Source of the DNA: Ignavibacteriota bacterium
Lineage (GTDB): Bacteria > Bacteroidota > Ignavibacteria > Kapaibacteriales > UBA2268
Length of the DNA: 39,746 bases
Direction of reading: 5' to 3'
Assembly: GCA_024636855.1 (NCBI GenBank)
Contig: JAGXGG010000049.1
Span: 84,362 to 124,107 of the forward strand
Shown: positions 8,367 to 24,599 of the stretch, piece by piece
Layout of the letters: each line of letters opens with the position of its first letter
Position numbering within the stretch: position 1 is the first letter of the stretch
Notes under the pieces: model-generated
Told to the model about the DNA's origin: nothing
The model's input: the letters and a program-made list of their open reading frames with translations, nothing else
Database searches by the model: none
Position numbers and translations under genes: made by a program

Positions 8367-8382
8367 ATAGGAGTACTCCTAT
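8367..8382 (+). promoter_or_regulatory. Palindromic Shine-Dalgarno/start region of rpoC
   Basis: ATAGGAGTACTCCTAT is a perfect 16-base palindrome that contains the AGGAG ribosome site (8369-8373) and the first two bases of the rpoC ATG. In RNA, AGGAG could pair with CTCCT only through a very tight loop or between two molecules, hiding the ribosome site. It may also serve as a protein-binding operator. Confidence 0.45.
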
Positions 8383-11300
8383 GCAATCAATACCATTACC
8401 GAAAAAAGGTTACAATAAGATTTCCATCAAGATTGCTTCGCCGGATGACATATTAAATAGGTCAAGAGGAGAGGTAACTAAACCGGAAACCATCAATTAC
8501 AGGTCATTTAGACCAGAGAAAGATGGGCTTTTCTGTGAAAAAATCTTCGGTCCAATCAAAGATTGGGAATGTGCTTGTGGTAAGTATAAGAGAATTAGAT
8601 ACAAAGGTATTGTATGTGATAGATGTGGGGTAGAAGTTACCCAAAAATCTGTACGTCGTGAACGTATGGGGCACATCATGCTTGCAGTCCCTGTTGTCCA
8701 TGTATGGTTCCTACGTACACTGCCTAGTAAAATAGCAGGTATTTTGGGAATGACAACGAAAGATGTAGAGCGTATCGCTTACTATGAATCTTATGTTGTT
8801 GTTCAGCCAGGTGGGACTGGACTTCAAATCAAAGATTTGTTGACTGAGGAACAGTATCTAGAGGTTATGGACTCATTGCCTCCTGAACACTTCGAATTAG
8901 ATGATGAAGACGAAGCTAAATTCGTAGCTCTAATTGGTGGAGAAGCAATCAAAGAACTTCTAAAAAGGGTTAAACCTATAGAAGACTATCACAGATTAAA
9001 AGAAAGATTAAAAACTGAAACTTCGCAAACTAGAAAGAAAGATATTCTAAAACGTTTGACTATCTTAGATGCATTCGGTCCGAACGCTGAAAAAGAAATG
9101 CCAAATGATCCAGATTGGATGGTTTTAGATATTATTCCAGTTATTCCACCAGACCTAAGACCGCTTGTGCCTTTGGAAGGTGGTAGATTTGCGACTTCTG
9201 ATTTGAATGACCTTTATAGAAGGGTAATCATCAGAAACAACAGATTAAAAAGACTAATTGATATCAAAGCTCCTGAAGTAATTCTTAGAAATGAGAAGCG
9301 TATGCTTCAAGAATCTGTAGATGCACTATTCGATAATTCGAGAAGAGCAGTACGTAGTGATTCACAAAGAGCATTGAAATCTTTAGCTGATACATTGAAA
9401 GGGAAATCTGGTAGATTCCGTCAGAACTTACTTGGTAAACGTGTTGACTATTCTGGTCGTTCGGTTATCGTTGTAGGTCCTGAGTTGAAATTACACGAAT
9501 GTGGTCTCCCTAAAGATATGGCTGTCGAACTATTCAAACCTTTTATCATACGTAAGTTGATAGAGCGTGGATATGTTAAAACAGTTAAATCGGCTAAAAA
9601 ATTAGTTGAAAGAAAAACTGATGAAGTATGGGATATTCTAGAGAAAGTTATTCAGGGTCACCCTGTTATGCTTAATCGTGCTCCTACGCTACACCGTTTG
9701 GGTATCCAAGCTTTCCAACCAAGATTGGTCGAAGGTAAAGCTATTCAGCTTCACCCATTAGTATGTACTGCATTCAACGCCGATTTTGACGGTGATCAGA
9801 TGGCAGTCCATCTACCAATTAGTTATGAAGCACAATTAGAGGCTTTCCTACTAATACTTGCGCCGCATAATATTATGCACACGCAAAACGGTGATCCAAT
9901 TGCAGTTCCTTCTCAAGATATGGTCTTGGGTGTGTATTATCTTACGAAACACAAACCGGATGCTAAAGGCGAAGGTAAAATGTTTGGTAATACAGAAGAA
10001 GTTAAGTTAGCTTACGACAATAAAGTTGTCGACTTACACGCTAAAATTAAACTTCGTTGGAATGGTAAAATGGTTGAAACTACAGTTGGTAGAGCAATGT
10101 TTAACGATATTGTTCCTCCAGAAATGGGCTTCATCAATGAGTTATTAACTAAGAAAAGACTAAGACAAATTATCGGTTCTTGTTTCAGAACAACTGGACT
10201 TGATGTTACTGTCAAATTCTTAGATAAACTAAAAGAACTTGGTTTCTTCTATGCAACTCGTGGTGGTTTATCTGTAAGTATTCATGATGTTAAAATCCCT
10301 GAATTAAAAACTAAAATAATTGACGCTGCTGATAAGAAAGTAGAAGGCATCGAGATGGCATACATCAATGGTGTAATCAGTGGTGGTGAAAGATATAACA
10401 AGATAATTGATACATGGTCAAATGCTACTAATAAAGTAGCTGATAAACTTTACTCAGAAATAGCAAAAGACAAACAAGGGTTTAACTCTTTTTGGATGAT
10501 GCTTGACTCTCAAGCGAGAGGGTCTAAAGAGCAAATTCGTCAGTTAGCTGGTATGCGTGGTCTAATGGCGAAACCGAAGAAATCAGTTTCTGGTTCTACA
10601 GGTGAGCTAATTGAAAATCCGATTATCTCTAACTTCAAGGAAGGTCTATCTATCCTTGAGTACTTTATCTCTACTCACGGTGCTCGTAAAGGTCTAGCCG
10701 ATACAGCATTGAAAACAGCAGATGCGGGTTATCTAACTCGTAGATTGCATGACGTAGCTCAAGATATGATCATAACTGATCGTGATTGTGGTACGATAAG
10801 GGGTGTGGAGATGGAAGCACTGAAAGATGGGGAAGAGGTTAAAGAGCCACTTTACGAAAGAATCTTAGGACGTGTGGCACTAGTAGATGTACATGATAAT
10901 ATATCAGACGAATTACTTGTCAAAGGTGGAGAAATCATCGATGAGAATATTGCTCAGAAGATTGAGGGTTCATCAGTAGAGAAAATTAATATACGTTCTG
11001 TATTAACATGTGAAAATCGTCGTGGTGTTTGTGCTAAGTGTTACGGGCGTAATATGTCAACTTCACGTCTTGTAGATGTTGGGGAAGCAGTTGGTACTAT
11101 AGCTTCACAATCAATCGGTGAACCTGGTACACAGCTAACACTAAGAACGTTCCACACAGGTGGTTCTGCTTCATTAGTAGCTTCACAATCGACAGTTAAT
11201 GCTAAATTTGACGGTATTATTCAGTTCGAGAATATGAGAACTGTATCTTATAATGGTGAATCAGGCGAGATTACAATCGTAGTTTCTCGTAGTGGTGTTA

Positions 11301-12634
11301 TCAATCTAATTGATCCAGAATCTAACCGTAAACTAACTTCTTATGACGCAACTTATGGTGCTACTATCGAAATTCAAGATGGTGATAAAGTTACTAAAGG
11401 ACAGCTGTTATACGAATGGGATCCATATAACTCATCAATCGTTTCGGAAGTTGCGGGTAAAATTAACTATAAAGATTTATTACCTAATGTAACTTATCGT
11501 GAAGTAAATGATGAGCAAACTGGTCACATTACAAAAGTTGTTATTGATTCTAGAGATAGAACTAAATCTCCAACTATTGAAATACTTGATAAAGCAGGTG
11601 AAGTAATACGTACATACAATATTCCATCTCGTTCTCAACTTAGAGTTGAAAACAACGAAGATATTGGATCTGGTACGCAATTAGTTAAGATTCCTAGAGA
11701 CATGGGTCGTACAAGAGATATCACGGGTGGTTTACCTAGGGTAACTGAATTGTTCGAAGCTCGTTCTCCACATAATCCAGCTATTGTTACTGAGATTGAT
11801 GGTATCGTATCATTTGAAAAACCTAAGCGTAATCAACGTGTTGTGAGAATAACTTCACTTGATGAAAAGACAGAATCAGAATACTTAGTACCTGTAGGAC
11901 GTCATATATTGGTTCAAGAGAAAGACTTTATTCGTGCTGGTGATAGAATCTCTGAAGGCTCGATCAACCCTCACGATATATTGAAAATTAAAGGACCAAA
12001 CGCTGTACAGGAATACTTAGTAAATGAAATACAAGAAGTTTACCGTATGCAAGGTGTTAAGCTGAATGATAAGCACATAGAAGTAATTGTAAGACAAATG
12101 CTTCAAAAAGTGAAAATCATTGACTCTGGTGATACACACATGCTAGAAAACGAAAACTTCGATAAGATTAAGTTTATAGATGATAACGAAGCAGTTAAAT
12201 CACTAGTAGTCGTTACTGACAAAGGTGATTCTAACTACAACGAGAATTATCTATATCCAAGAAGAAAAGTAAAAGCTGTAGTTAAGGACTTGAAGAAGAA
12301 AGGTAAGACTCCTCCTGAATTCAGACCAGCAGAGCCATCTATAGGTGAACCAATATTATTAGGTATCACTCAGGCATCTCTGAAAACTGAAAGTTGGCTG
12401 TCCGCTGCTTCGTTCCAACAAACGACTGCTGTTCTATCTGACGCTTCTATTTCTGCTAAGGTTGATTACTTGAAAGGCTTGAAGGAGAATATCATACTTG
12501 GTCAACTAATACCTGCTGGTACTGGTTTACGTAAGTATCAAGATATGCATATAGCAAGTACTATAGGTAATATATTCGGACATAATCCGAAACCAATCGA
12601 AGAAGAAGAAACAGAAGAGAAAGTAGAAGCTTAA
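8381..12634 (+). CDS. rpoC: DNA-directed RNA polymerase subunit beta'
   Basis: A 1417-residue beta' subunit. The N-terminal zinc site uses C64, C66, C79 and C82. The catalytic [12 protein letters not shown] motif, whose three aspartates bind the active-site magnesium, lies near residue 467. The second zinc site uses C803, C877, C884 and C887. The bridge-helix and trigger-loop region is present ([19 protein letters not shown]; then [18 protein letters not shown] near 905). The C-terminal part has the usual Bacteroidota-like domain length, ending in an acidic Glu-rich tail. It is separate from rpoB, unlike in some epsilonproteobacteria. A clear Shine-Dalgarno site sits 7 bases before ATG, and an intrinsic terminator follows 26 bases after the stop. 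Confidence 0.98.
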
Positions 12635-12823: not shown

Positions 12824-14545
12824 ATGAAATATGCAATTATAATTATATCAATTATTCTTTTAAATTTGAACTCCCTCAAAGCCAATGAGTTCGAATTTAT
12901 TAATCGATTTACGAATACAAACCGTACTAACCAATATATATCTACAATAGATCAAGAATATAATATATTTATTACTGGAGGTTTTGAGGAACCGATTAAT
13001 TTCAATCCTAATTCTGAAGAAAGTGAATTAAAATCTAATGATTATTCTGACATTTATCTTGCTAAATTAGATTCGGAGGGTAACCATATCTGGTCTCATA
13101 GTTTTGGAGGTGAAGGTAGTCAAATATCTTATACTCTGACTATAGATAGAAATGGAGATATATTGATTACAGGACTATTCACAGAATCAATTATTTTCGA
13201 CTCAACGAATACAAATCAATCATTTCTTGCTAAAGGACATAATGATATTTTTATTGCCAAATTCTCGAGTGATGGTAAACTAAAATGGGCAAGGCAAATA
13301 GGGTCTAGTTTAGATGAATATGTACGCTCACTATCTGTTGACAGTCTTGATAATCTCTATATTTCCGGTACATTTAGTATGGAAACAGATTTCGATCCTA
13401 GTGAAAACACTACTATAATAAAACCAAAATATGGAACTGACATCTTTATTTTGAAACTTGATGCAAATGGTGAATTTCTATGGGTTAAATCATTAGAAGG
13501 GGATTATAATGAGAATTCATCTGTTAGTCTTATTGATAATAATGGAGACTTTTGCTTAACGGGTTACTTCCATAAACAATTAGATTTTGACCCAAGTGAT
13601 GAAGAATTCATAATCAAAAACTTAGGATATACTGATATATTTATAGCAAAATATACTCAAAATGGAGATTTCCTATGGGCTAAAAGTTTTAGAGGTGTTT
13701 CTAGGACTTTTGTAACAGATATGGTTGTCGACAAATATGACAATCTAATCATCGTTGGTGATTATACTTGGACGGTAGATTTTGACACAGGTGAAAGTGA
13801 AGACACTTTAACGTCTTTAGAAATGAACGATGGTTTTATCTCTAAACTTGATAAAAATGGAAATTATATTTGGGTAAAAAGGTTTAGTGGTTCTCTAGGA
13901 GTATGGATTAGCGGGATTGAATTGAATAGTAGGAATGAAATTCTCACTATTGGTAGGTTTGCTCGAGATTGTGATTTTGACACAGGTGAGGGGACGTTAA
14001 TAGAATCGACTACTAATGGTAGTGCCTTTTATTTGGCTAGTTTAGATTCTAACGGTAAACTATTAGATGCATCTATAATTGATGGAATAGTAATGCCAAG
14101 ATCAATTAATCTACTGAAAGATGGCAAAGTATTAATAGGGCTGACTTTATCTGGGGATTCTGATTTTATATTAAGTGGTAAAGAGATAAAAGTAAAAGAT
14201 TATTTCAATAATGACTTTTTATTTATACGAACTGCAGAAATAGAGTCGTCTATTGCTACAAATTATACAAAAAGACCGATTGAAATATTCCCCAACCCAG
14301 CAAAGGAGTGTATAGCTCTACAATTCTATACTGATTTATCAAGTGATATAGGTAAGCTGGAGTTAGAGCTTATAAATATTTCCACAGGCGTAGCTTATAA
14401 TATTAAAGATTATAACATTAGCTTTATTAATAATTGGGAAGGAACGTTTGATTTTGATGTGTCAAGATTTCCTACTGGTAGCTATCTAATTAATATGAAA
14501 CTTGGTGAATACCAAAGAAGCTCCAAATTAATCATAGCAAAATAA
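12824..14545 (+). CDS. Secreted repeat protein with type IX secretion C-terminal sorting domain
   Basis: A 573-residue protein with a Sec signal peptide (about 1-20, hydrophobic, ending LKA). Residues about 40-430 hold five or six repeats of about 65 residues following the pattern DIFIAKLDxxGxxLWxKSFxG ... D..DNLxITGxF...xDFDPS, similar to SBBP-type or delta-60-type beta-propeller repeats. The C-terminus from about 486 (IEIFPNPAKECIALQF, later FPTGSYLINMKLGE and KLIIAK) is a type A type IX sorting domain, cleaved as the protein is anchored or released at the cell surface. The ligand is unknown. It stands alone between two near-identical terminators, so it is probably a monocistronic insertion after rpoC. 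No good Bacteroidota promoter was found in its 128-base leader. Confidence 0.85.
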   Translation: MKYAIIIISIILLNLNSLKANEFEFINRFTNTNRTNQYISTIDQEYNIFITGGFEEPINFNPNSEESELKSNDYSDIYLAKLDSEGNHIWSHSFGGEGSQISYTLTIDRNGDILITGLFTESIIFDSTNTNQSFLAKGHNDIFIAKFSSDGKLKWARQIGSSLDEYVRSLSVDSLDNLYISGTFSMETDFDPSENTTIIKPKYGTDIFILKLDANGEFLWVKSLEGDYNENSSVSLIDNNGDFCLTGYFHKQLDFDPSDEEFIIKNLGYTDIFIAKYTQNGDFLWAKSFRGVSRTFVTDMVVDKYDNLIIVGDYTWTVDFDTGESEDTLTSLEMNDGFISKLDKNGNYIWVKRFSGSLGVWISGIELNSRNEILTIGRFARDCDFDTGEGTLIESTTNGSAFYLASLDSNGKLLDASIIDGIVMPRSINLLKDGKVLIGLTLSGDSDFILSGKEIKVKDYFNNDFLFIRTAEIESSIATNYTKRPIEIFPNPAKECIALQFYTDLSSDIGKLELELINISTGVAYNIKDYNISFINNWEGTFDFDVSRFPTGSYLINMKLGEYQRSSKLIIAK

Positions 14546-14611: not shown

Positions 14612-14884
14612 CTATTTTGGATGAAGTGGTTTGTTATTTAGCGAAGGGGGAGTGGAACTTTTCTTTTTATTAATATTCATGCTATACTCGATTGAATTTG
14701 TTTTGTTTAAGACCTTAAATAAGATAAATATTATAACAATAGCTCCAAAAGCAACATTGTAAATATTGTCAATTGAATGAAAACCTTTATTCCCATTTGT
14801 AAACAACATTATAATCAGCTTAATTATGAAAAATATTGCTAATGATGAAAGTAATCTTTTAATGAAACTGGATTTCTTATTCAT
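14612..14884 (-). CDS. Small two-span membrane protein, unknown function
   Basis: A 90-residue product that I do not recognise. It has a basic N-terminus (MNKKSSFIKR), a hydrophobic helix at about 11-28 (SLAIFFIIKLIIMLF), a short polar loop, a second helix at about 42-59 (VAFGAIVIIFILFKVL), and a basic, Pro/Ser-rich tail. Both ends are probably cytoplasmic. The ATG overlaps by 8 bases the end of the frameshifted remnant upstream, which suggests that the two were once translationally coupled. It ends 8 bases from a bidirectional terminator. The gene may be real, or part of the decaying region behind the lipoprotein cluster. Confidence 0.55.
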   Translation of the reverse strand: MNKKSSFIKRLLSSLAIFFIIKLIIMLFTNGNKGFHSIDNIYNVAFGAIVIIFILFKVLNKTNSIEYSMNINKKKSSTPPSLNNKPLHPK

Positions 14885-15198
14885 CTCTTTTTATACTATA
14901 CTCCTCAAGTATATGCATCTTCCCATAATTAGAGGGATTAATTTCAGTTATGTAACTAAGCTGTTTAAAGTAATAAAGTCCAATGCTGTCTGCTAATGCA
15001 TAGAGGTAGTGTCTGACTGATTTACTTTTGTCTCGCTACACCTTTACGGATTTCAACATCTACAGCATTTAATATACCTATGAACTCATAGGTTTTAACT
15101 GATTTGCAATTTATTTCTTTAGAGAAATTACCAATTTTCTTGCCTGTCAATGTCATCGTAATGTTGGCTTTATAATCACTTTGTTCTAAGATTGGTGA
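14877..15198 (-). pseudogene. Frameshifted gene remnant downstream of the lipoprotein cluster
   Basis: Two overlapping frames together look like one coding sequence. The upstream frame (15198 to 15022) reads YKANITMTLTGKKIGNFSK... to ...GILNAVDVEIRKGVARQK then stops. The downstream frame picks up at about 15036 with KSVRHYLYALADSIGLYYF... to ...MHILEEYSIKRDE, stopping at 14877. Removing one base from the A4 run (15026-15029 on the plus strand, as T4) would join them as GVARQSKSVRHYLYA. The only ATG gives about 100 residues after repair. No known family is recognised. It begins four bases beyond the end of the first LamG lipoprotein gene. A sequencing or assembly error in the short run is possible. 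Confidence 0.55.
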
Positions 15199-15202
15199 CT
15201 AA

Positions 15203-16498
15203 TCATTGAATTAAACTTAGTATTTCGCTTTCAGTTAGCGCTCTACTAAATAAATAAATATCATCAATAGCCCCATGAAATGAACTTAGTTGGTCTGGTC
15301 TTGCACCTATACCAATATTCAAATTTGATACTTGTGGAGTTTGAAAACCAGTTGTTTCAAGTGAAGACTTCCCATTAAGATAAAAAGTCGCAGAACCATT
15401 CTTGAATGTAACAGCTACATGATGCCATTGTGATTGCGTCACACTTAAAGAAGAGATTTTAACAGTTGAGGCGTTACCATAAGTCCCCAAAAATACTTTC
15501 ATATCCTTATATATACCAAATGCCCATGAAGCAGCCCCTGCTTTGCCAGAACCCCATTTCGATAAAAACTCGTAGTAACCAACATTCGAATTTTCACCTA
15601 ATGTAGGATCTGGTTTTACCCACATTGAAATTGTGAAATCTGTCTGAAGTTGAATCTCATTAGAGATTAATATTTTTGAATTTGTACCACTTGAACCTTT
15701 GAAATAAGCAGCGCTTGACTTATTCCCATATCTATCATCAACATACTGGATATTCTGCTCTAAACCATCATAACCATTAATTCCAGAATCAATAGCATCT
15801 CCATCTAACTTCCAATTCGCTATAAGATTCGGTAAATCTACAACTACTTTCTCCTTATAGGCAAATAAAGCTATCTCACTAGGAGTTTGAGAGTACTTGT
15901 CTTTTACAATTACTTGCCATTGATATTCAATACCTTCAACGAAATCATACGAATATTCGAAATAGCTTAGGGGCTCATTCTCTGCAATTAATTCCATCTC
16001 TTTATCAGCTACACCAAAATATACATCATATTTCAATGAATCAGTATTTATATCTGTTGCTGACCATCTAAATTGGAATTTCTTTGAACCAATAAAAGAT
16101 TGATTTCTTGGGTATAATATTTCCGGGATACTTGGTGGTGAATTAAGTGATTCTTTCGAAGTCAAACTAAAAAGTATATCATTCGTTATATCAGCACTTA
16201 CTCGAATTTTATCTTTGAATTCTATATAGTCATTATGAGTTATAATAATATCATATAGCTCTGGCCCTATAGTTTCCAAAAAGAAAGTACCATCTTCATT
16301 TGATTTAGTAGTAGAAGAGAGTGGAGATGTTTTGATAAATGCTCCAGATATTGGTTCCTCTGTGCTTGCGTCTATCAATTTTCCTTTTATACTGCCAATA
16401 AGTTTATGGTATGATTCATCCGAATTTGTAGGGCTTGCATCGTCACCACAAGATACAAGAGCCAACAAAAGTAGAGAAGCTGCTAGAATACTTTGCAT
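15203..16498 (-). CDS. LamG-domain lipoprotein, paralogue 1
   Basis: A 431-residue predicted lipoprotein: the signal MQSILAASLLLLALVSC has lipobox LVSC with Cys17, followed by acidic GDD. Next come a carboxypeptidase-regulatory-like beta domain (about 33-112, GSIKGKLIDASTEEPISGA), a fibronectin-III-like domain (about 118-215), and a C-terminal LamG/concanavalin-like fold (about 220-431, with NWKLDGDAIDSG, FTISMWVKP, WHHVAVTFKNG, FHGAIDDIYLF). LamG folds often bind glycans or adhesive ligands. I start at 16498, not the longer frame from 16564, because the extra 22 codons are the duplicated non-coding spacer also found before paralogue 2. It is last of three tandem copies, probably one transcript with the other two. 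Confidence 0.85.
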   Translation of the reverse strand: MQSILAASLLLLALVSCGDDASPTNSDESYHKLIGSIKGKLIDASTEEPISGAFIKTSPLSSTTKSNEDGTFFLETIGPELYDIIITHNDYIEFKDKIRVSADITNDILFSLTSKESLNSPPSIPEILYPRNQSFIGSKKFQFRWSATDINTDSLKYDVYFGVADKEMELIAENEPLSYFEYSYDFVEGIEYQWQVIVKDKYSQTPSEIALFAYKEKVVVDLPNLIANWKLDGDAIDSGINGYDGLEQNIQYVDDRYGNKSSAAYFKGSSGTNSKILISNEIQLQTDFTISMWVKPDPTLGENSNVGYYEFLSKWGSGKAGAASWAFGIYKDMKVFLGTYGNASTVKISSLSVTQSQWHHVAVTFKNGSATFYLNGKSSLETTGFQTPQVSNLNIGIGARPDQLSSFHGAIDDIYLFSRALTESEILSLIQ

Positions 16499-16503
16499 TT
16501 TAT

Positions 16504-16531
16504 AGAATCCGTTGTTGTTGAATATAGACAT
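16504..16531 (-). repeat. Duplicated spacer block, copy A
   Basis: This 28-base block just upstream of paralogue 1 matches 17881-17908 upstream of paralogue 2 with one mismatch. It marks the spacer as part of a tandem gene duplication and supports the shorter start for paralogue 1. GAGATACAC near the far side of both spacers is also shared. Confidence 0.85.
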
Positions 16532-16572
16532 TTTATATACGGTTATTTTATTTTGGAGATACACTTTTTTGT

Positions 16573-17874
16573 TTATTCTCGTGAGAGTTTTAATATTTCA
16601 TGTTCCTCTAAAGCTCTGGTGAAAATGTAAACATCATCAATTTGTCCATGGTAAGAGCTCAATTGATCTTGTCTACCACCTATTGAAGCATTATTATCAG
16701 AGTCTTTAGGATTATATAGACCTACAGCAGTGTAAAAAAACTCACCATTTACATAAAAATTTGCAACACCACTATTATATGTAACAGCAATATGACTCCA
16801 TTTGTTAGGAATCATATAAGTATTATGGGCTATTTTAATGTGTGAGGAATAATTAAATGTTGAGATATAAAGATTGGAATTCTTAGTTATCCCGAATGCC
16901 CATGACGCTCTACCTGCTCCGGACCCTCCCCACTTAGAAACACATTCAAAATAGCCCTCTCCTCCATTTTCGCCTAGTGAAGGTTCAGGATTCACCCAAA
17001 GTGCTATAGTAAATTGACTAGATAGTTGGAATGTCTTTGGTAACAAAACTTTAGACTTTACTGAGTAACTTCCTTTGAATTTTGCTGAACTGTAAGCCTT
17101 ATTATTTCTATCTTCCACAAAATCTACATTTTGTACAATTCCATCGTAAGAATTCGGACCGTAATCTTTAGCATTACCATCTAATTTCCAATACCCAAGA
17201 AGATCTGGGATATCAGAAAGAATTTTTTCATTATACTGGAACATATTCGTATCACTTACAGAATATGAATATTTATCAGATGCTATAACATACCAATAGT
17301 AGTAATGATCATTAACAAACTCTTTTTCATAATCTAAATAGTTTACTTTTAAATTTGTATTTAAAGAATAAAAATCCTCACCATTTTCACTAAAGTATAA
17401 TCTATAAGTTAAACTATCTTCATCTATATCAAAGGCGTCCCATCTAAATCTGAATGATTTAGATCCTATCTTTGATCCATTAGAGGGGTAAACTAATATT
17501 GGCTTATCTGGTTTAGTATTCATAGAAACTAATGAACTTAATTCAAATCTAATGTTATTTGTAATACCCGCACTAACTATTATTTTCTCTTTGTATTTGA
17601 TATAATCAGAATGTGTTATAATAATTTCATAAGTCTCTGGGCCGACTGATTCAATTATAAAAGTACCATCTTCATTTGATTTGGTAGTAGAAGAGAGTGG
17701 AAAAGTTTTGATAAATGCTCCAGATATTGGTTCCTCAGTAATTGCGTCTATCAATTTTCCTTTTATACTGCCAATTAGTTTGTGGTATGATTCATTCGAA
17801 TCTGTAGGGCTTGCATTCTCAACACAAGATACTAGAGACAATAAAAGTAGAGAAGCTAATAAAATACTTTTCAT
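16573..17874 (-). CDS. LamG-domain lipoprotein, paralogue 2
   Basis: A 433-residue paralogue with the same order: lipoprotein signal MKSILLASLLLLSLVSC (Cys17, followed by VEN rather than GDD), a carboxypeptidase-regulatory-like domain (about 33-112), an Fn3-like domain (about 118-215, with FRFRWDAFDIDEDSLTY) and LamG (about 222-433, with YWKLDGNAKDYGPNSYDG, FTIALWVNP, WSHIAVTYNSG, YHGQIDDVYIF). Its first 90 or so codons are nearly identical at DNA level to paralogue 1, while the Fn3-like region differs strongly. It lies 74 bases upstream of paralogue 1. The exact ligand is unknown; surface adhesion or glycan binding is inference from the LamG fold. Confidence 0.85.
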   Translation of the reverse strand: MKSILLASLLLLSLVSCVENASPTDSNESYHKLIGSIKGKLIDAITEEPISGAFIKTFPLSSTTKSNEDGTFIIESVGPETYEIIITHSDYIKYKEKIIVSAGITNNIRFELSSLVSMNTKPDKPILVYPSNGSKIGSKSFRFRWDAFDIDEDSLTYRLYFSENGEDFYSLNTNLKVNYLDYEKEFVNDHYYYWYVIASDKYSYSVSDTNMFQYNEKILSDIPDLLGYWKLDGNAKDYGPNSYDGIVQNVDFVEDRNNKAYSSAKFKGSYSVKSKVLLPKTFQLSSQFTIALWVNPEPSLGENGGEGYFECVSKWGGSGAGRASWAFGITKNSNLYISTFNYSSHIKIAHNTYMIPNKWSHIAVTYNSGVANFYVNGEFFYTAVGLYNPKDSDNNASIGGRQDQLSSYHGQIDDVYIFTRALEEHEILKLSRE

Positions 17875-17880
17875 CTTACT

Positions 17881-17908
17881 AGAATCCGTTATTGTTGAAT
17901 ATAGACAT
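17881..17908 (-). repeat. Duplicated spacer block, copy B
   Basis: This is the partner of 16504-16531 (27 of 28 bases identical), placed six bases upstream of the start of paralogue 2. The spacer before paralogue 3 (19252 onwards) has diverged and no longer shows the block clearly. Confidence 0.85.
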
Positions 17909-17946
17909 ATAACATACGATTTTTTTATTTTTGAGATACACTTTGT

Positions 17947-19251
17947 TTATTCTTGTGATAATGATTGAATTTCTTGATCAGATAATTCCCTATCAAATAT
18001 ATATACATCGTCAATAGCCCCATGAAAAGAACTCAATTGATCTTGTCTTCCACCAATAGAAGCATTGAAGTTAGAAAACTGTGGGTTTTGCATCCCACCG
18101 GCAGTATATACATTTTCACCATCTATATAAAAAGTGGCCGTACCTGCTTTAAAAGTCACAGCGATATGAATCCAAACTTCAGTATCAATTTCAATATTAT
18201 CAGTGGCTTTTAAGGTTGTACTATTTCCGTAAGTTCCTAGGAATAAATTGCGGCTTTTATTAATTCCAAATGTCCAAGAGGTTTTACCAGCTCCTGTACT
18301 TCCCCATTTAGAAATACAATCATAATTCCCCACTGATCCGTTTTCTCCAAGGGTTGGTAATGCTTTTATCCATAGTGCAATTGTGAATTGATTAGATAAT
18401 TGTATCGAAGTAGGTAATATGACTTTAGAATTAGAACCACTATTCCCTTGAAAACTAGCTGCATATTCAAAGTTATTTTTCCTGTCATTCACAAAAAAAA
18501 CATTTTGTATGCTACTTGCGTAGCTATTGGGTCCATAGTCAGTCGCGTTACCATCGAATTTCCAGTTCCCAATCATATTGGGTATATCAGTAATCACAGT
18601 TTCTTTAAAATTAAAACTAAAGGTATCGCTTATACTAAATGCATAATTATCCTTCGCAATAACATACCATTCAAATTTATCTATTCCATTTAGACTATAC
18701 TCATAATCCAAAGTTTTTGTAATCAAGTTATTACCAATTATTTGAAAATCTGAACCAACGATTCTAAAGAAAACATCGTATTTTAAACTATCATTGTCAA
18801 TGTCTTTGCATTCCCATGTAAATTTGATTTCTTTAACTCCTATATTAGCGCCATTTAATGGGTATGTCAGGGTCGGTTTGTTTGGTCTATTATTAGCCGA
18901 TTCGATAGAAGTAATAAATAATTCAATATCATTAGTTATTCTATCACTTACTTTAATCTTGGATGTATATGCTAAGTAATTCTTATGCTTAATATTCAAA
19001 TCATAAATATCTGGACTTATTTCAGGAAGTTCAAATTTACCATTCTCGTCACTCCTCGTTGTTGAGGTAATTGGGAATGTGCTAATGATAGCTCCACTTA
19101 CAGGTAAGTCTGTTGCAGCATCTATTATATACCCTTTGATATTTCCCTTTAATAAAGGCTCATTCTTTTCTGTCGGTGTTGTCGGGTTTTCATCGTCACC
19201 ACATGACGCAAGTATTAACAATAGTAAGGTTGATACAATAATTCTTTTCAT
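17947..19251 (-). CDS. LamG-domain lipoprotein, paralogue 3
   Basis: A 434-residue paralogue: signal MKRIIVSTLLLLILASC (Cys17) followed by acidic GDDENPT, a carboxypeptidase-regulatory-like domain (about 36-113, NIKGYIIDAATDLPVSGA), an Fn3-like domain (about 121-218) and LamG (about 226-432, with NWKFDGNATDYGPNSYAS, FTIALWIKA, WIHIAVTFKAG, FHGAIDDVYIF). It is the first gene of the minus-strand cluster and the most diverged at its N-terminus, so probably the oldest split. It is divergent from the EF-G gene at 19466. A weak CATCTTTG -7-like box lies 10-17 bases before its ATG on the minus strand, too weak to call. Confidence 0.85.
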   Translation of the reverse strand: MKRIIVSTLLLLILASCGDDENPTTPTEKNEPLLKGNIKGYIIDAATDLPVSGAIISTFPITSTTRSDENGKFELPEISPDIYDLNIKHKNYLAYTSKIKVSDRITNDIELFITSIESANNRPNKPTLTYPLNGANIGVKEIKFTWECKDIDNDSLKYDVFFRIVGSDFQIIGNNLITKTLDYEYSLNGIDKFEWYVIAKDNYAFSISDTFSFNFKETVITDIPNMIGNWKFDGNATDYGPNSYASSIQNVFFVNDRKNNFEYAASFQGNSGSNSKVILPTSIQLSNQFTIALWIKALPTLGENGSVGNYDCISKWGSTGAGKTSWTFGINKSRNLFLGTYGNSTTLKATDNIEIDTEVWIHIAVTFKAGTATFYIDGENVYTAGGMQNPQFSNFNASIGGRQDQLSSFHGAIDDVYIFDRELSDQEIQSLSQE

Positions 19252-19465: not shown

Positions 19466-21556
19466 ATGTTTAATATTGAAAAACTTCGTAATATTGGTAT
19501 AGCTGCTCATATTGATTCTGGTAAAACAACAGTTTCTGAGCGTATATTATTCTATACTGGTAAAATTCACAAAATTTCTGAAGTTCGTGGTAAAGATGGT
19601 GTCGGTGCTAAAATGGACAGCATGGAGCTGGAAAGAGAAAAAGGTATCACTATCCAATCTGCTGCTACTTTCTGTGAGTGGAAAGGTTATTCTATAAACG
19701 TTATTGATACTCCAGGTCACATTGACTTCACAGTTGAGGTAGAGCGTTCACTTAGAGTGTTGGACGGTGCTGTGTTAGTGCTTTGTTCAGTGGCTGGTGT
19801 TCAATCACAATCAATAACTGTTGATAGACAAATGCGTCGTTATGGTGTTCCTCGTCTTGCATTTATCAATAAATGTGATAGATCTGGTGCAAACCCTGAC
19901 AGAGTTATAGGTCAACTTAAAGACAAGTTGAAACATAACCCTGTACAGATTACGATGGAAGTTGAACTAGAAGATAAATTCAATGGTATTATTGACCTAT
20001 TGAAAATGAAAGCTCTTTACTTTGAAGGTGATGATGGTGAGATAATTGTTGAAAAGGAAATCCCTGAAGACAAATTAGCTCGTGCAAAAGAGAAAAGAGT
20101 AAAAATGATTGAGTCTTTAGCGGACTACAATGATGAGATTGCAGAAAAATTCTTGATGGAAGAAGACTTTACAATAGAAGAATTACAATTAGCGATTAGA
20201 AAGGCTACTATTTCTCAAGATATTACTCCAGTTTTAGTTGGTACGGCACTTAAAAATCAAGGTGTTCAAACTTTATTGGATGCTGTAGTTGACTATTTGC
20301 CAAATCCGAAAGAAGTAGAAAACTTTGCTTTAGATTTAGATCAAGAAGAGAAAAAAGTTCCTTTAGATATTAATCCTGATAAGCCTCTTGTGGCTTTAGC
20401 TTTCAAATTAGAAGATGGCCAATTTGGTCAACTTACTTATATGAGAATATATCAAGGTGTATTGACGAAAGGTGAAAACATATTTAATACAAGTACTGAT
20501 AAGAAATTTAAAATACCTAGATTGGTAAGAATGCACTCAGACGAAATGGTAGAGATTGAAACAGCTCAAGCTGGTGATATCGTAGCTACTTTTGGTATTG
20601 ATTGTGCATCTGGAGATACTTTTGGTGACGGCAAATTGCATTACTCAATGGAGACAATGTATATTGCTAATCCTGTTATTGAATTAACAGTAAAACCTAA
20701 AGATAAAGCTGGTCAAGTGAATTTCTCTAAAGCATTAAACAGATTTACTAAAGAAGATCCTACATTCCAAGTTGCTCGTGATGACGAATCTGGAGATACA
20801 ATCATCAAAGGAATGGGTGAGCTTCACTTAGAAATCTACATAGAAAGAATAAAACGTGAGTTTAAAACTGATGTAATAGTAGGTGAACCTAAAGTAGCTT
20901 ATAGAGAGGCAATTAGTATGCCTATCGATTATGATTATACACATAAGAAGCAATCGGGTGGTTCTGGACAATATGCTCGTATAGCGGGTAGATTTGAGCC
21001 AATGGAAGCAAGTGCTGAAGAATCTTATTTATTTGAAAACAAGATTGTCGGTGGTTCTGTTCCTAGAGAATATATACCAGCTGTAGATAAAGGTTTCCAA
21101 GAGCAACTAAAAGAAGGTGTTCTGATTGGTCAGCCAGTAGTTGGTGTGAAAGCATTATTGAATGATGGTTCTACTCACGCAGTTGACTCTTCTGATGGTG
21201 CATTTAAAATTGCAGCTAAAGCTGCTATTAGAGAATCTCTAAGAAAAGCTGGTCCAGTAATCTTAGAACCAATAATGAAATTAGAAACTAGCTGTCCTGA
21301 AGAGTTCCAAGGGGTTGTAATTGGTCAAATCAACCAAAGACGTGGTTTGATTCTTACAACAACAATGGATGCTACTTATGTAGTTGTTGAAGCTGAGGTT
21401 CCTTTGAAGGAAATGTTTGGTTATTCAACTGACTTACGTTCAGCTACACAAGGTAAAGGAGAATTTACAATGGAATTCGCTAAGTATGAGAGAGTTCCTA
21501 AGTCAGTTCAAGAAGAAATTATTAGAGCTTACGAAGAGCAAGAAGCTCAAAAATAA
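19466..21556 (+). CDS. fusA: Elongation factor G, spdEFG1/mitochondrial EFG1-like
   Basis: A 696-residue translational GTPase that drives translocation on the ribosome. G motifs: AHIDSGKT (14-21), DTPGH, NKCD. The switch region reads [20 protein letters not shown] then GITIQSAAT, the signature of spdEFG1 and mitochondrial EFG1 rather than of the classic bacterial EF-G. The domain IV tip, near residues 491-505, keeps the translocation motif [13 protein letters not shown]. The end, [16 protein letters not shown] then a short helix, also fits EFG1. It opens the str operon under its own promoter, before rpsL, reversing the usual rpsL-rpsG-fusA order for this copy. A second, different EF-G is at 22560. 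Subfamily assignment is from motifs, not a tree. Confidence 0.93.
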
Positions 21557-22559: not shown

Positions 22560-24599
22560 ATGCCAAGAACTGTTCCTATAGAGAAAGTTAGAAATATTGG
22601 AATTATGGCACACATTGATGCTGGTAAAACTACAACTACCGAACGCATCTTGTTTTATACTGGCTATCTTCATAAGATAGGCGAAGTTGATGAAGGTACT
22701 GCTTTCATGGACTTTATGGAACAAGAGAAAGAAAGAGGTATTACGATACAATCTGCTGCGATTCCTACTGAATGGAAGGGGAACAAGATTAATATTATTG
22801 ATACTCCGGGTCACGTAGATTTTACTGCTGAGGTGCAACGCTCACTTAGAGTTTTAGATGGTGCGATTGCTGTATTTTGTGGAGTTGGTGGTGTTGAACC
22901 GCAAACAGAAACTGTATGGCGTCAAGCTGATGAATATCATGTTCCTAGAATAGCTTATGTAAATAAGATGGATAGATTAGGGGCTGATTTTGATAAAGCT
23001 GTTCTCTCAATCAAAGAGAAGCTAAAAGCTAATCCTATTCCAGTTCAGTATCCTATTGGTGCTGAAGATAATTTCGAAGGGATTATTGATTTGATTGAAA
23101 TGGTTGCTTACAAATATGATATACCATCTTATGGTGCAAAGTTTGAAAAAATTGAAATACCAGCTAATCTAGTTAGTAAATGCGAAGAGTTAAGAGGGAA
23201 TCTACTTGAGTCTGTTGCTGAACAAAGTGAAGAGCTATTAGAAAGTTATCTTGAAAATGGTGATTTGACAATAGATGAAATTAAATCTGGAATTAGAAAA
23301 GGTGTTTTGAATCTAACTATTATACCAGTTCACGTTGGTTCATCTTTAAAGAATGTTGGAGTTCAACCTTTATTAGATGCAGTTATAGATTATCTTCCAT
23401 CTCCATTAGATGTAAAATACATGGATGGATTTGATATAGAAGATGAACAAAAGCATTTGACTAGAAAGCCTAATGATGAAGAAAGCTTTTCAGCATTAGC
23501 ATTTAAAGTTAATTCAGATCCTTTTGTAGGTAAAGTTACTTTTATTAGAGTATATTCAGGAGTATTAAAAGTTGGAGATTCTGTATTGAATCCAACTGAA
23601 GGAAAAAAAGAGAAAATCCTAAAGATACTTCAAATATTTTCTAATAAGAGAAATGAAATAGCTGAAGCTCATGCAGGTGATATAGTAGCAATACCATCAC
23701 TAAGGTTTACTAAAACAGGAGATACTCTTTGCGATAGTAAAAACCCGATAATGTATGAAAAAATTAACTTTTCTGAACCTGTGATAAATCAATCTTTGGA
23801 AGCAAAGACGACAGCAGATCAAGATAAGTTAGTTGAAGTTCTTGAAAAATTACAAATAGAAGACCCTACGTTTAAATACAAATATGATGAAGACAATGGT
23901 CAATTAATCATAAGTGGAGTAGGGGAGTTACATCTGGAGATAATAGTCGATAGATTAACTCGTGAATTCAAACTTCCTGTTCGAGTAGGTCAACCACAAG
24001 TTGCTTACAGAGAGTGTATCATAGATACAGTAGAGCAAGAAGCTGAATTTGACAGAGATTTATCCGGTAAGAAGCATTACGGGAAAGTTCTTTTAAAGTT
24101 AGAAATAAACGACAACTCCGAAACTGTTGAGTTTGAAAACAAAGTGGACAAAAAAGTTCCACTAGAGTATATTAAAGCTGCCGAATTAGGTTCGGTGCAG
24201 GCTCTTCAAGTCGGTCCTCATGGTTATCCTATGACAAAAGTAAAAATTACTTTGTTGGATATACACTTTGACTCCGATTTGACTACCGATTTAGGTAGTA
24301 AGCTAGCCGCATCAGCTGCTGTTAGAGAAGCAGCCCGCCAAGCAGGTACAAATATACTAGAACCAATATTTTTCGTAGAAGTAACAACACCAGAAGATTA
24401 TCTTGGTGATGTGATTGCTGATTTGAATTCCCGTCATGGTAGAATAGAAGGAATAAGTCAGAAAAACGATTTACAGATAGTGCGAGCACAAGCTCCACTA
24501 TCAAAAATGTTTGGATATGTAACCAAGCTAAGATCTGTTTCGCAAGGTAGAGCAAGTTATTCGATGAATTTCTCTCATTACGAAATAGTAAATAAATAG
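22560..24599 (+). CDS. fusA: Elongation factor G paralogue, spdEFG2/mitochondrial EFG2-like
   Basis: A 679-residue EF-G family GTPase. G motifs are intact: AHIDAGKT (17-24), DTPGH, NKMD. The switch region reads [18 protein letters not shown]. The domain IV tip near residues 497-510, where translocating EF-Gs carry H-K-x-Q-S-G-G, instead has [14 protein letters not shown], close to the mitochondrial EFG2 pattern LDRTLGDKRH. Mitochondrial EFG2 and spirochaete spdEFG2 work with ribosome recycling factor to split ribosomes and do not translocate. By that analogy this copy is likely a recycling factor in the place where most bacteria keep fusA (after rpsG, before tuf). The subfamily call is inference from motifs; membership of the EF-G family is certain. 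Confidence 0.92.

What the first reader, a model, noticed from the sequence alone, without database searches (positions are those of the whole stretch)
15203..19251. Lipoprotein triplet with mosaic divergence
Paralogues 1 and 2 are almost identical in DNA over the signal peptide and carboxypeptidase-regulatory-like domain (about 16290-16498 versus 17664-17874), yet their Fn3-like regions and much of LamG differ strongly. The spacer block is also nearly identical. This pattern fits either gene conversion limited to the 5' end, or rapid diversification of the ligand-facing domains behind a fixed export module.
Basis: seen in the sequence. Interest (0 to 1): 0.5.

Follow-up and report, generated by a model that had tools for sequence, protein, structure and literature searches.

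The report
Patchwork copying between neighbouring lipoprotein genes
Two of three neighbouring genes for cell-envelope lipoproteins share one sharply bounded stretch of about 300 bases at their front ends, most likely because one copy overwrote part of the other (gene conversion), an ordinary process seen here with clean boundaries.

Summary
Three tandem minus-strand genes (p3 17947-19251, p2 16573-17874, p1 15203-16498) encode CarboxypepD-regulatory + LamG lipoproteins. p1 and p2 share one 298-column tract (p1 16284-16584 / p2 17660-17958), 90.3% identical against 58.0% elsewhere; 0 of 200 shuffles reach this, and each edge is placed within about 10 bases. It runs from the last codons of the preceding gene through the spacer to codon ~72, inside the CarboxypepD domain. 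Silent sites show the step too: dS 0.24 inside, 1.66-1.85 outside; the p1/G002 pair shows no such step at fourfold sites. In the 3' part p1 groups with G002 (99/98) and p1+p2 is rejected (p-AU 0.0155, one of six tests, uncorrected). So this is recombination. Diversification behind a fixed export module is not supported: the tract ignores domain borders, and three family orthologue pairs have dN/dS of 0.30 or less in every part. Best reading: partial gene conversion, perhaps p1 to p2, in a lipoprotein cluster beside fusA whose content differs in all four genomes of the genus. Ordinary in kind; H. pylori bab 5' conversion is a close published parallel.

The parts
17947..19251 (-). p3: lipoprotein, 434 aa, first gene of the array; CarboxypepD-regulatory + unnamed middle part + LamG_3; not part of the tract
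   Evidence: ORF; LamG_3 93.9 bits (cut-off 27.6), CarbopepD_reg_2 36.3 bits (cut-off 32.2)
16573..17874 (-). p2: lipoprotein, 433 aa, second gene; 5' end p1-like, the rest a separate old paralogue
   Evidence: ORF; LamG_3 84.5 bits, CarbopepD_reg_2 39.8 bits; trees
15203..16498 (-). p1: lipoprotein, 431 aa, third gene; nearest relative over the 3' part is the gene of G002
   Evidence: ORF (longer mechanical start 16564), start set by alignment; LamG_3 90.8 bits, CarbopepD_reg_2 38.6 bits; 99/98 with G002
16284..16584 (-). tract copy at p1: last codons of p2, spacer, signal peptide, first half of CarboxypepD domain of p1
   Evidence: best segment, 298 columns at 90.3%; same breakpoints in the BIC-best 3-segment model
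17660..17958 (-). tract copy at p2: last codons of p3, spacer, signal peptide, first half of CarboxypepD domain of p2
16499..16572 (-). spacer p2/p1, 74 nt, inside the tract
   Evidence: 85% to the other spacer (D5); gapped alignment
17875..17946 (-). spacer p3/p2, 72 nt, inside the tract
14889..15189 (-). broken remnant of another lipoprotein gene (239 aa, intact in G003), just downstream of p1; part of the cluster's turnover
   Evidence: tblastn of the G003 protein, residues 140-239 in two pieces at 63% identity, E 4e-26
14612..14884 (-). small 90-aa protein; look-alike small ORFs (88-90 aa) lie in the clusters of G002 and G003
   Evidence: ORFs (likeness judged by eye); no Pfam match

Best explanation
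A partial gene conversion (non-reciprocal homologous recombination) copied about 300 bp between the neighbouring genes p1 and p2: the last codons of the upstream gene, the spacer, the signal peptide and the first half of the CarboxypepD domain. The rest of the two genes stayed as old paralogues with near-saturated silent sites. p1 is the likelier donor. The proteins are lipid-anchored envelope proteins whose C-terminal LamG (concanavalin-like) domain probably binds glycan or matrix. The array is one state of a lipoprotein cluster beside fusA that gains, loses and breaks genes within the genus. Shown: the tract, its edges, the silent-site step, the differing cluster content. Inferred: the mechanism (RecA-type conversion), the direction, surface exposure, ligand binding.
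For: Segment 90.3% vs 58.0%, 0 of 200 shuffles, sharp edges; 0 of 5000 permutations. Fourfold sites identical in p1/p2: 26 of 31 in columns 1-76 vs 15 of 53 after column 106, p 1e-6; flat in p1/G002 (11 of 22 vs 22 of 68, p 0.2), p2/p3 (p 0.26) and p1/p3 (p 0.41). dS 0.24 in codons 1-73 vs 1.66 and 1.85 beyond. Spacer 85% identical. 3' part: p1 with G002 99/98, p1+p2 rejected p-AU 0.0155; 5' part: p1 with p2 92/86 and G002 next. Exact shared runs up to 34 bp inside the tract.
Against: 5' tree supports are below the starred level; of six AU tests one was under 0.05 and none was corrected; in the tract p2+p3 (p-AU 0.07) and p1+G002 without p2 (0.10) are not rejected, so the direction is open. 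Codons 76-105 of p1/p2 are intermediate (103 columns at 71% in the 4-segment model, which BIC does not prefer), which may point to more than one event. Only one genome of the species is held and no reads were seen, so a fault of the assembly is not formally excluded.
Confidence: 0.85

Rival explanations
1. Unequal crossing-over between two older tandem genes created p2 as a hybrid (p1-like front, p3-like back) and duplicated the spacer in one step.
For: p2's 3' part is nominally sister to p3 (70/39) and slightly closer to p3 than to p1 (aa 51% vs 46% after column 106); the order of the genes fits.
Against: In one step the back of p2 would be as close to p3 as its front is to p1. It is not: p2/p3 dS after column 106 is 1.66 against 0.24-0.36 for p1/p2 in the front. 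An ancient crossing-over followed by a later conversion remains possible.
Confidence: 0.06
2. Fast adaptive diversification of the ligand-facing domains after a recent whole-gene duplication, behind a fixed export module.
For: LamG has the highest dN/dS of the four parts in two of three family orthologue pairs (0.30 and 0.18 against lower values; in the third pair 0.19 is second to 0.22; in the L042/L044 pair the middle part, 0.24, is higher), so it is slightly looser at most.
Against: Silent sites jump together with replacement sites at the edge; the tract ends in mid-domain and includes a non-coding spacer; dN/dS is 0.30 or less in every part of the three pairs; the signal peptide and linker diverge fastest between p1 and G002.
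Confidence: 0.04
3. The tract came into p2, or into both genes, from a third copy in another strain or species by horizontal transfer and homologous recombination.
For: p1's CarboxypepD core is 92% identical in protein to that of G002 over columns 51-100, so related versions exist in the genus.
Against: dS of p1/G002 there is 1.22, about that of fusA1 (1.20), so that likeness is old and kept by constraint. In the four genomes of the genus the tract's DNA matches only p1 and p2 well, plus 74 nt at 84% in G002 and two matches of about 21 nt in the own genome. The neighbour is a sufficient donor.
Confidence: 0.05

Closest known systems
Helicobacter pylori babA/babB/babC 5' gene conversion (PMC4552749; passages seen)
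   Different: There the converted front carries CT repeats that make the gene phase-variable and the 3' end is homologous too; here no such repeat was noted in the tract, the back ends are saturated, and the genes are adjacent lipoproteins in one array.
Cassette systems: Borrelia vlsE, Neisseria pilE/pilS, Anaplasma msp2 (review PMC4534519; passages seen)
   Same: Segmental gene conversion between copies of a surface protein gene.
   Different: Those move variable segments from silent partial copies into one expression site. Here all three genes are complete and it is the conserved front that was copied.
Porphyromonas gingivalis fimC/fimCDE mosaic (PMC5266723; passages seen)
   Same: A conserved 5' part (fimC 5' region over 96% nt identity) beside strongly divergent sequence.
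   Different: Allelic exchange between strains, not between neighbouring paralogues of one genome.
Gene conversion between E. coli rRNA operons (PMC8022953; listing and abstract start seen)
   Same: Intragenomic conversion between copies in a bacterium.
   Different: Near-identical RNA genes kept alike; here a single tract in otherwise diverged protein genes.

Membership tests
Partial gene conversion between paralogues | One sharply bounded segment far more alike than the rest, beyond chance | tested here: met
   90.3% vs 58.0%, 0 of 200 shuffles, edges within about 10 bases; 0 of 5000 permutations
Partial gene conversion between paralogues | The step is present at silent and non-coding sites | tested here: met
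   fourfold 26 of 31 vs 15 of 53, p 1e-6; spacer 85%
Partial gene conversion between paralogues | Gene trees differ inside and outside the tract | tested here: inconclusive
   3' part rejects p1+p2 (p-AU 0.0155, uncorrected, one of six); 5' part favours p1+p2 (92/86) without rejecting the alternatives (0.07, 0.10)
Partial gene conversion between paralogues | Non-reciprocal transfer with a known donor | tested here: inconclusive
   p1 favoured as donor by the nesting of p2 with p1 and G002 in the tract; not shown
Silent-cassette antigenic variation | Silent or partial donor copies beside one expressed gene | tested here: not met
   All three genes are complete open frames; the only other match in the genome at E 0.001 or better is a LamG-only match of 29% identity
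CarboxypepD-regulatory + LamG lipoproteins | Both Pfam domains above the curated cut-off | tested here: met
   LamG_3 84.5-93.9 bits (27.6), CarbopepD_reg_2 36.3-39.8 bits (32.2) in 3 of 3
CarboxypepD-regulatory + LamG lipoproteins | Lipidation at the lipobox cysteine | not testable with these tools
   Cys17 follows an LVS/LAS stretch in 3 of 3; Pfam LPAM_1 only at 15.1 bits (cut-off 20) in p3
Bacteroidota surface-exposed lipoproteins | Export signal of acidic residues after the +1 cysteine | tested here: inconclusive
   CGDDAS in p1, CGDDEN in p3, CVENAS in p2, against the motifs QKDDE, SDDDD, SDDFE in PMC5080379 (passages); p2 fits poorly and the taxon is unnamed

The most novel reading that the evidence does not exclude
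The cluster beside fusA keeps a shared 5' module (spacer, export signal, stalk domain) homogenised by repeated directed conversion while the binding domains drift apart: a standing device for fitting new binding domains onto a working front end. The intermediate codons 76-105 would be the trace of an earlier round.
Probability: 0.06. Interest if true: 0.45.

Novelty: new member of a known kind. Interest (0 to 1): 0.2.

Why it matters
It is a clean natural example of how neighbouring envelope-protein genes become mosaics, with edges placed to a few bases and a control pair that separates recombination from selection. It also warns that trees or annotation transfer based on the N-terminal part of such genes will mislead. 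It does not change general understanding.

Tried and rejected
Generality: two further tandem pairs in the family (G018 in L021, G006 in L012) show no 5' tract (highest 30-codon nt identity in the first 100 columns 0.52 and 0.59). Only these two pairs were examined; there was no systematic search for others.

Naming the organism: the one genome-contig scan gave one distant hit, to a cyanobacterial MAG, 28% over the LamG part; the plasmid collection gave two Spirosoma plasmids at 24-25% over 39% of the query.

Structure: AlphaFold2 on the three window proteins gave mean pLDDT 59.4 and pTM 0.41. The 50 Foldseek hits shown (of 322 at E 0.001 or better) are parts of sialidases, an arabinanase, teneurins, a minor pilin and clostridial neurotoxin binding domains, at TM 0.18-0.31 by query length. 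I read these as shared beta-sandwich/jelly-roll fold from a poor model and draw no function from them.

Middle domain: no fn3 match in p1-p3 at E up to 5; fn3 at E 0.15 in the G002 gene and fn3_SORL1 at E 0.03 in the G003 gene, both under their cut-offs.

Promoter/terminator scan: 25 promoter-like sites against 28.8 (sd 6.0) in shuffles and 1 terminator-like against 1.8, so it says nothing about the spacers.

Family orthologue pairs: four were computed; the fourth (L049/L050) is saturated (dS 1.29 to infinite) and was left out of the dN/dS statement. In one of the three kept pairs (L043/L055) dS is also lower in the front (0.24) than in the middle and LamG (0.56, 0.62), a milder slope than in p1/p2; I did not test it.

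Rows: for the trees 17 family loci were given and 16 used; L053 was dropped by the script as giving no new ORF. With 6 genus rows this made 22. L052 (LamG-only frame) was not given. The lipobox listing took the first cysteine after residue 8 and is wrong for several family rows, so it is cited for the window and genus rows only. The GENECONV program itself was not run.

Papers: eight searches. None of the listings seen names this array, but the library lacks most subscription journals, so no claim is made about what is in print.

Full report
WHAT IS THERE. Between a 1417-aa gene that I take for rpoC (8381-12634; name recalled from its sequence, not tested) plus an SBBP-repeat gene (12824-14545), and the first of two EF-G genes (19466-21556; NCBIfam EF-G), lie three head-to-tail genes on the minus strand, transcribed p3, p2, p1, with spacers of 72 and 74 nt. 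Each encodes a likely lipoprotein of 431-434 aa with a CarboxypepD regulatory-like domain, a middle part without a Pfam name and a C-terminal LamG_3 domain. Protein identities are 48-54% over the whole length.

THE MOSAIC. Aligned with their upstream spacers, p1 and p2 share one segment, p1 16584-16284 / p2 17958-17660, at 90.3% identity over 298 columns; the other 1129 columns are 58.0% identical. The gain in log-likelihood is 63.0, the highest of 200 shuffles 14.0. The upstream edge lies at 16586..16576 and the downstream edge at 16288..16283. A three-segment model with these breakpoints is the best by BIC among one to five segments. A GENECONV-like permutation of 783 variable sites gave 0 of 5000 for p1/p2, 366 of 5000 for p1/p3 and 1744 of 5000 for p2/p3. 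The other two pairs give only short C-terminal segments of borderline weight (10 and 14 of 200 shuffles). The tract starts in the last codons of the upstream gene and ends near codon 72, inside the CarboxypepD domain, so it respects neither gene nor domain limits.

RECOMBINATION, NOT SELECTION. Identical fourfold-degenerate sites in p1/p2: 26 of 31 in codon columns 1-76, 15 of 53 after column 106 (Fisher p 1e-6). The same comparison is flat for p1/G002 (11 of 22 vs 22 of 68, p 0.2), p2/p3 (p 0.26) and p1/p3 (p 0.41). NG86 dS for p1/p2 is 0.24 in codons 1-73, 1.66 in the middle part and 1.85 in LamG. The spacer is 85% identical. The p1/G002 pair shows what selection alone looks like: protein identity is 92% in columns 51-100 and 58% after column 106, with dS 1.22 and infinite. 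G002's fusA1 differs from the window's by dS 1.20, so the pair behaves like ordinary orthologues of that age. In smaller pieces p1/G002 dS is noisier (0.78 in columns 51-80; 0.86 in codons 1-34).

GENEALOGY. With 22 rows (6 from the genus, window included, and 16 of 17 family loci given), the 3' part (106-431) puts p1 with the G002 gene at 99/98; holding p1 and p2 together costs 25.1 log units, p-AU 0.0155. In codons 1-73 p1 and p2 pair at 92/86 with G002 next at 86/87. These 5' supports are short of starred; the p-AU is the only one under 0.05 of six run, uncorrected; and p2+p3 is not formally rejected in the tract (0.07) or in residues 18-105 (0.17). The picture favours p1 as donor and p2 as recipient, but p1+G002 without p2 is not rejected (0.10 and 0.16), so direction is open.

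DIVERSIFYING SELECTION. Of four family orthologue pairs computed, three have unsaturated dS (L043/L055, L054/L058, L042/L044). Their dN/dS is 0.13-0.24 in signal peptide plus linker, 0.04-0.17 in the CarboxypepD domain, 0.06-0.24 in the middle part and 0.18-0.30 in LamG. That is purifying selection throughout, at most a little looser in LamG. These are averages over whole parts and could hide single selected sites. One of the three pairs has a mild slope in dS as well (0.24 in front, 0.56-0.62 behind).

THE NEIGHBOURHOOD. In the four genomes of the genus the place beside fusA1 differs: three array genes here; in G003 one gene of 528 aa with an extra stretch that looks like a second copy of the middle part; in G001 one gene of 330 aa without the middle part, plus a LamG-only remnant; in G002 one gene at a contig start with fusA1 at the start of another contig, so the arrangement there is cut by the assembly. 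Downstream of p1, at 14889-15189, lies a broken remnant of a lipoprotein gene that is an open frame of 239 aa in G003. In the family 16 of 54 genomes have a match at E 1e-40 or better. For ten family genomes outside the genus I compared contigs with fusA1: in three (G027, G074, G035) an array relative and fusA1 share a contig and lie about 46, 49 and 269 kb apart; in the other seven they are on different contigs, which does not exclude adjacency where the array gene lies at a contig end (G018, G062). So the place beside fusA1 looks like a habit of this genus, not proven for all others.

HOW IT MOST LIKELY WORKS. The encoded proteins are probably lipid-anchored; p1 and p3 carry acidic residues after the cysteine, as in known surface-export signals of Bacteroidota (PMC5080379, passages), p2 only weakly. 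The LamG domain probably binds glycan or matrix; that is inference from the family. At DNA level, tandem copies with shared stretches of identity (now up to 34 bp) recombine; one such event copied about 300 bp between p1 and p2. Codons 76-105 are intermediate and might record an earlier event, but BIC does not ask for a fourth segment.

KNOWN OR NEW. The kind of event is well known. H. pylori bab genes show conversion in the 5' region, giving chimeras (PMC4552749, passages). Cassette systems such as vlsE and pilE (PMC4534519, passages) move variable parts from silent copies into one site; complete open frames in all three genes speak against that here. Two other tandem pairs in this family lack a 5' tract, so there is no sign of a standing mechanism. 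The finding is real, well explained and ordinary.

Noticed in passing
window 19466-21556 and 22560-24599: Two EF-G genes about 44% identical flank two short genes (123 and 155 aa, taken for rpsL and rpsG; names recalled); both pass NCBIfam EF-G and all four genomes of the genus have both. They may be a divided pair of the spdEFG type (name recalled; papers seen as listing only).
   Followed up: partly
window 14889-15189: Broken remnant of a lipoprotein gene whose 239-aa relative is an open frame in G003, directly downstream of p1.
   Followed up: partly
L034 5863-6252 (G001): LamG-only remnant of a further array gene between the 330-aa gene and fusA1.
   Followed up: partly
L006 868-2454 (G003): Array gene with an extra stretch before the middle part that looks like a second copy of it (by eye).
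   Followed up: no
window 12824-14545: SBBP beta-propeller protein with a Por secretion tail (27.1 bits, cut-off 27.0), between the presumed rpoC and the cluster; G003 has no ORF of this kind in the ORF list of that interval.
   Followed up: no
G000 C47 19034-19648 (L004, L036): A fourth LamG stretch in the genome, 29% identical to p2; a read-through of the region also shows an FkbM methyltransferase domain before it.
   Followed up: partly
L031 1318-1704, L033 7952-8305, L034 4369-4725: Small CarboxypepD-only lipoprotein-like ORFs (117-128 aa) in the clusters of G002, G003 and G001; Pfam-confirmed for the first two. No ORF of this kind is listed at that place in the window.
   Followed up: partly
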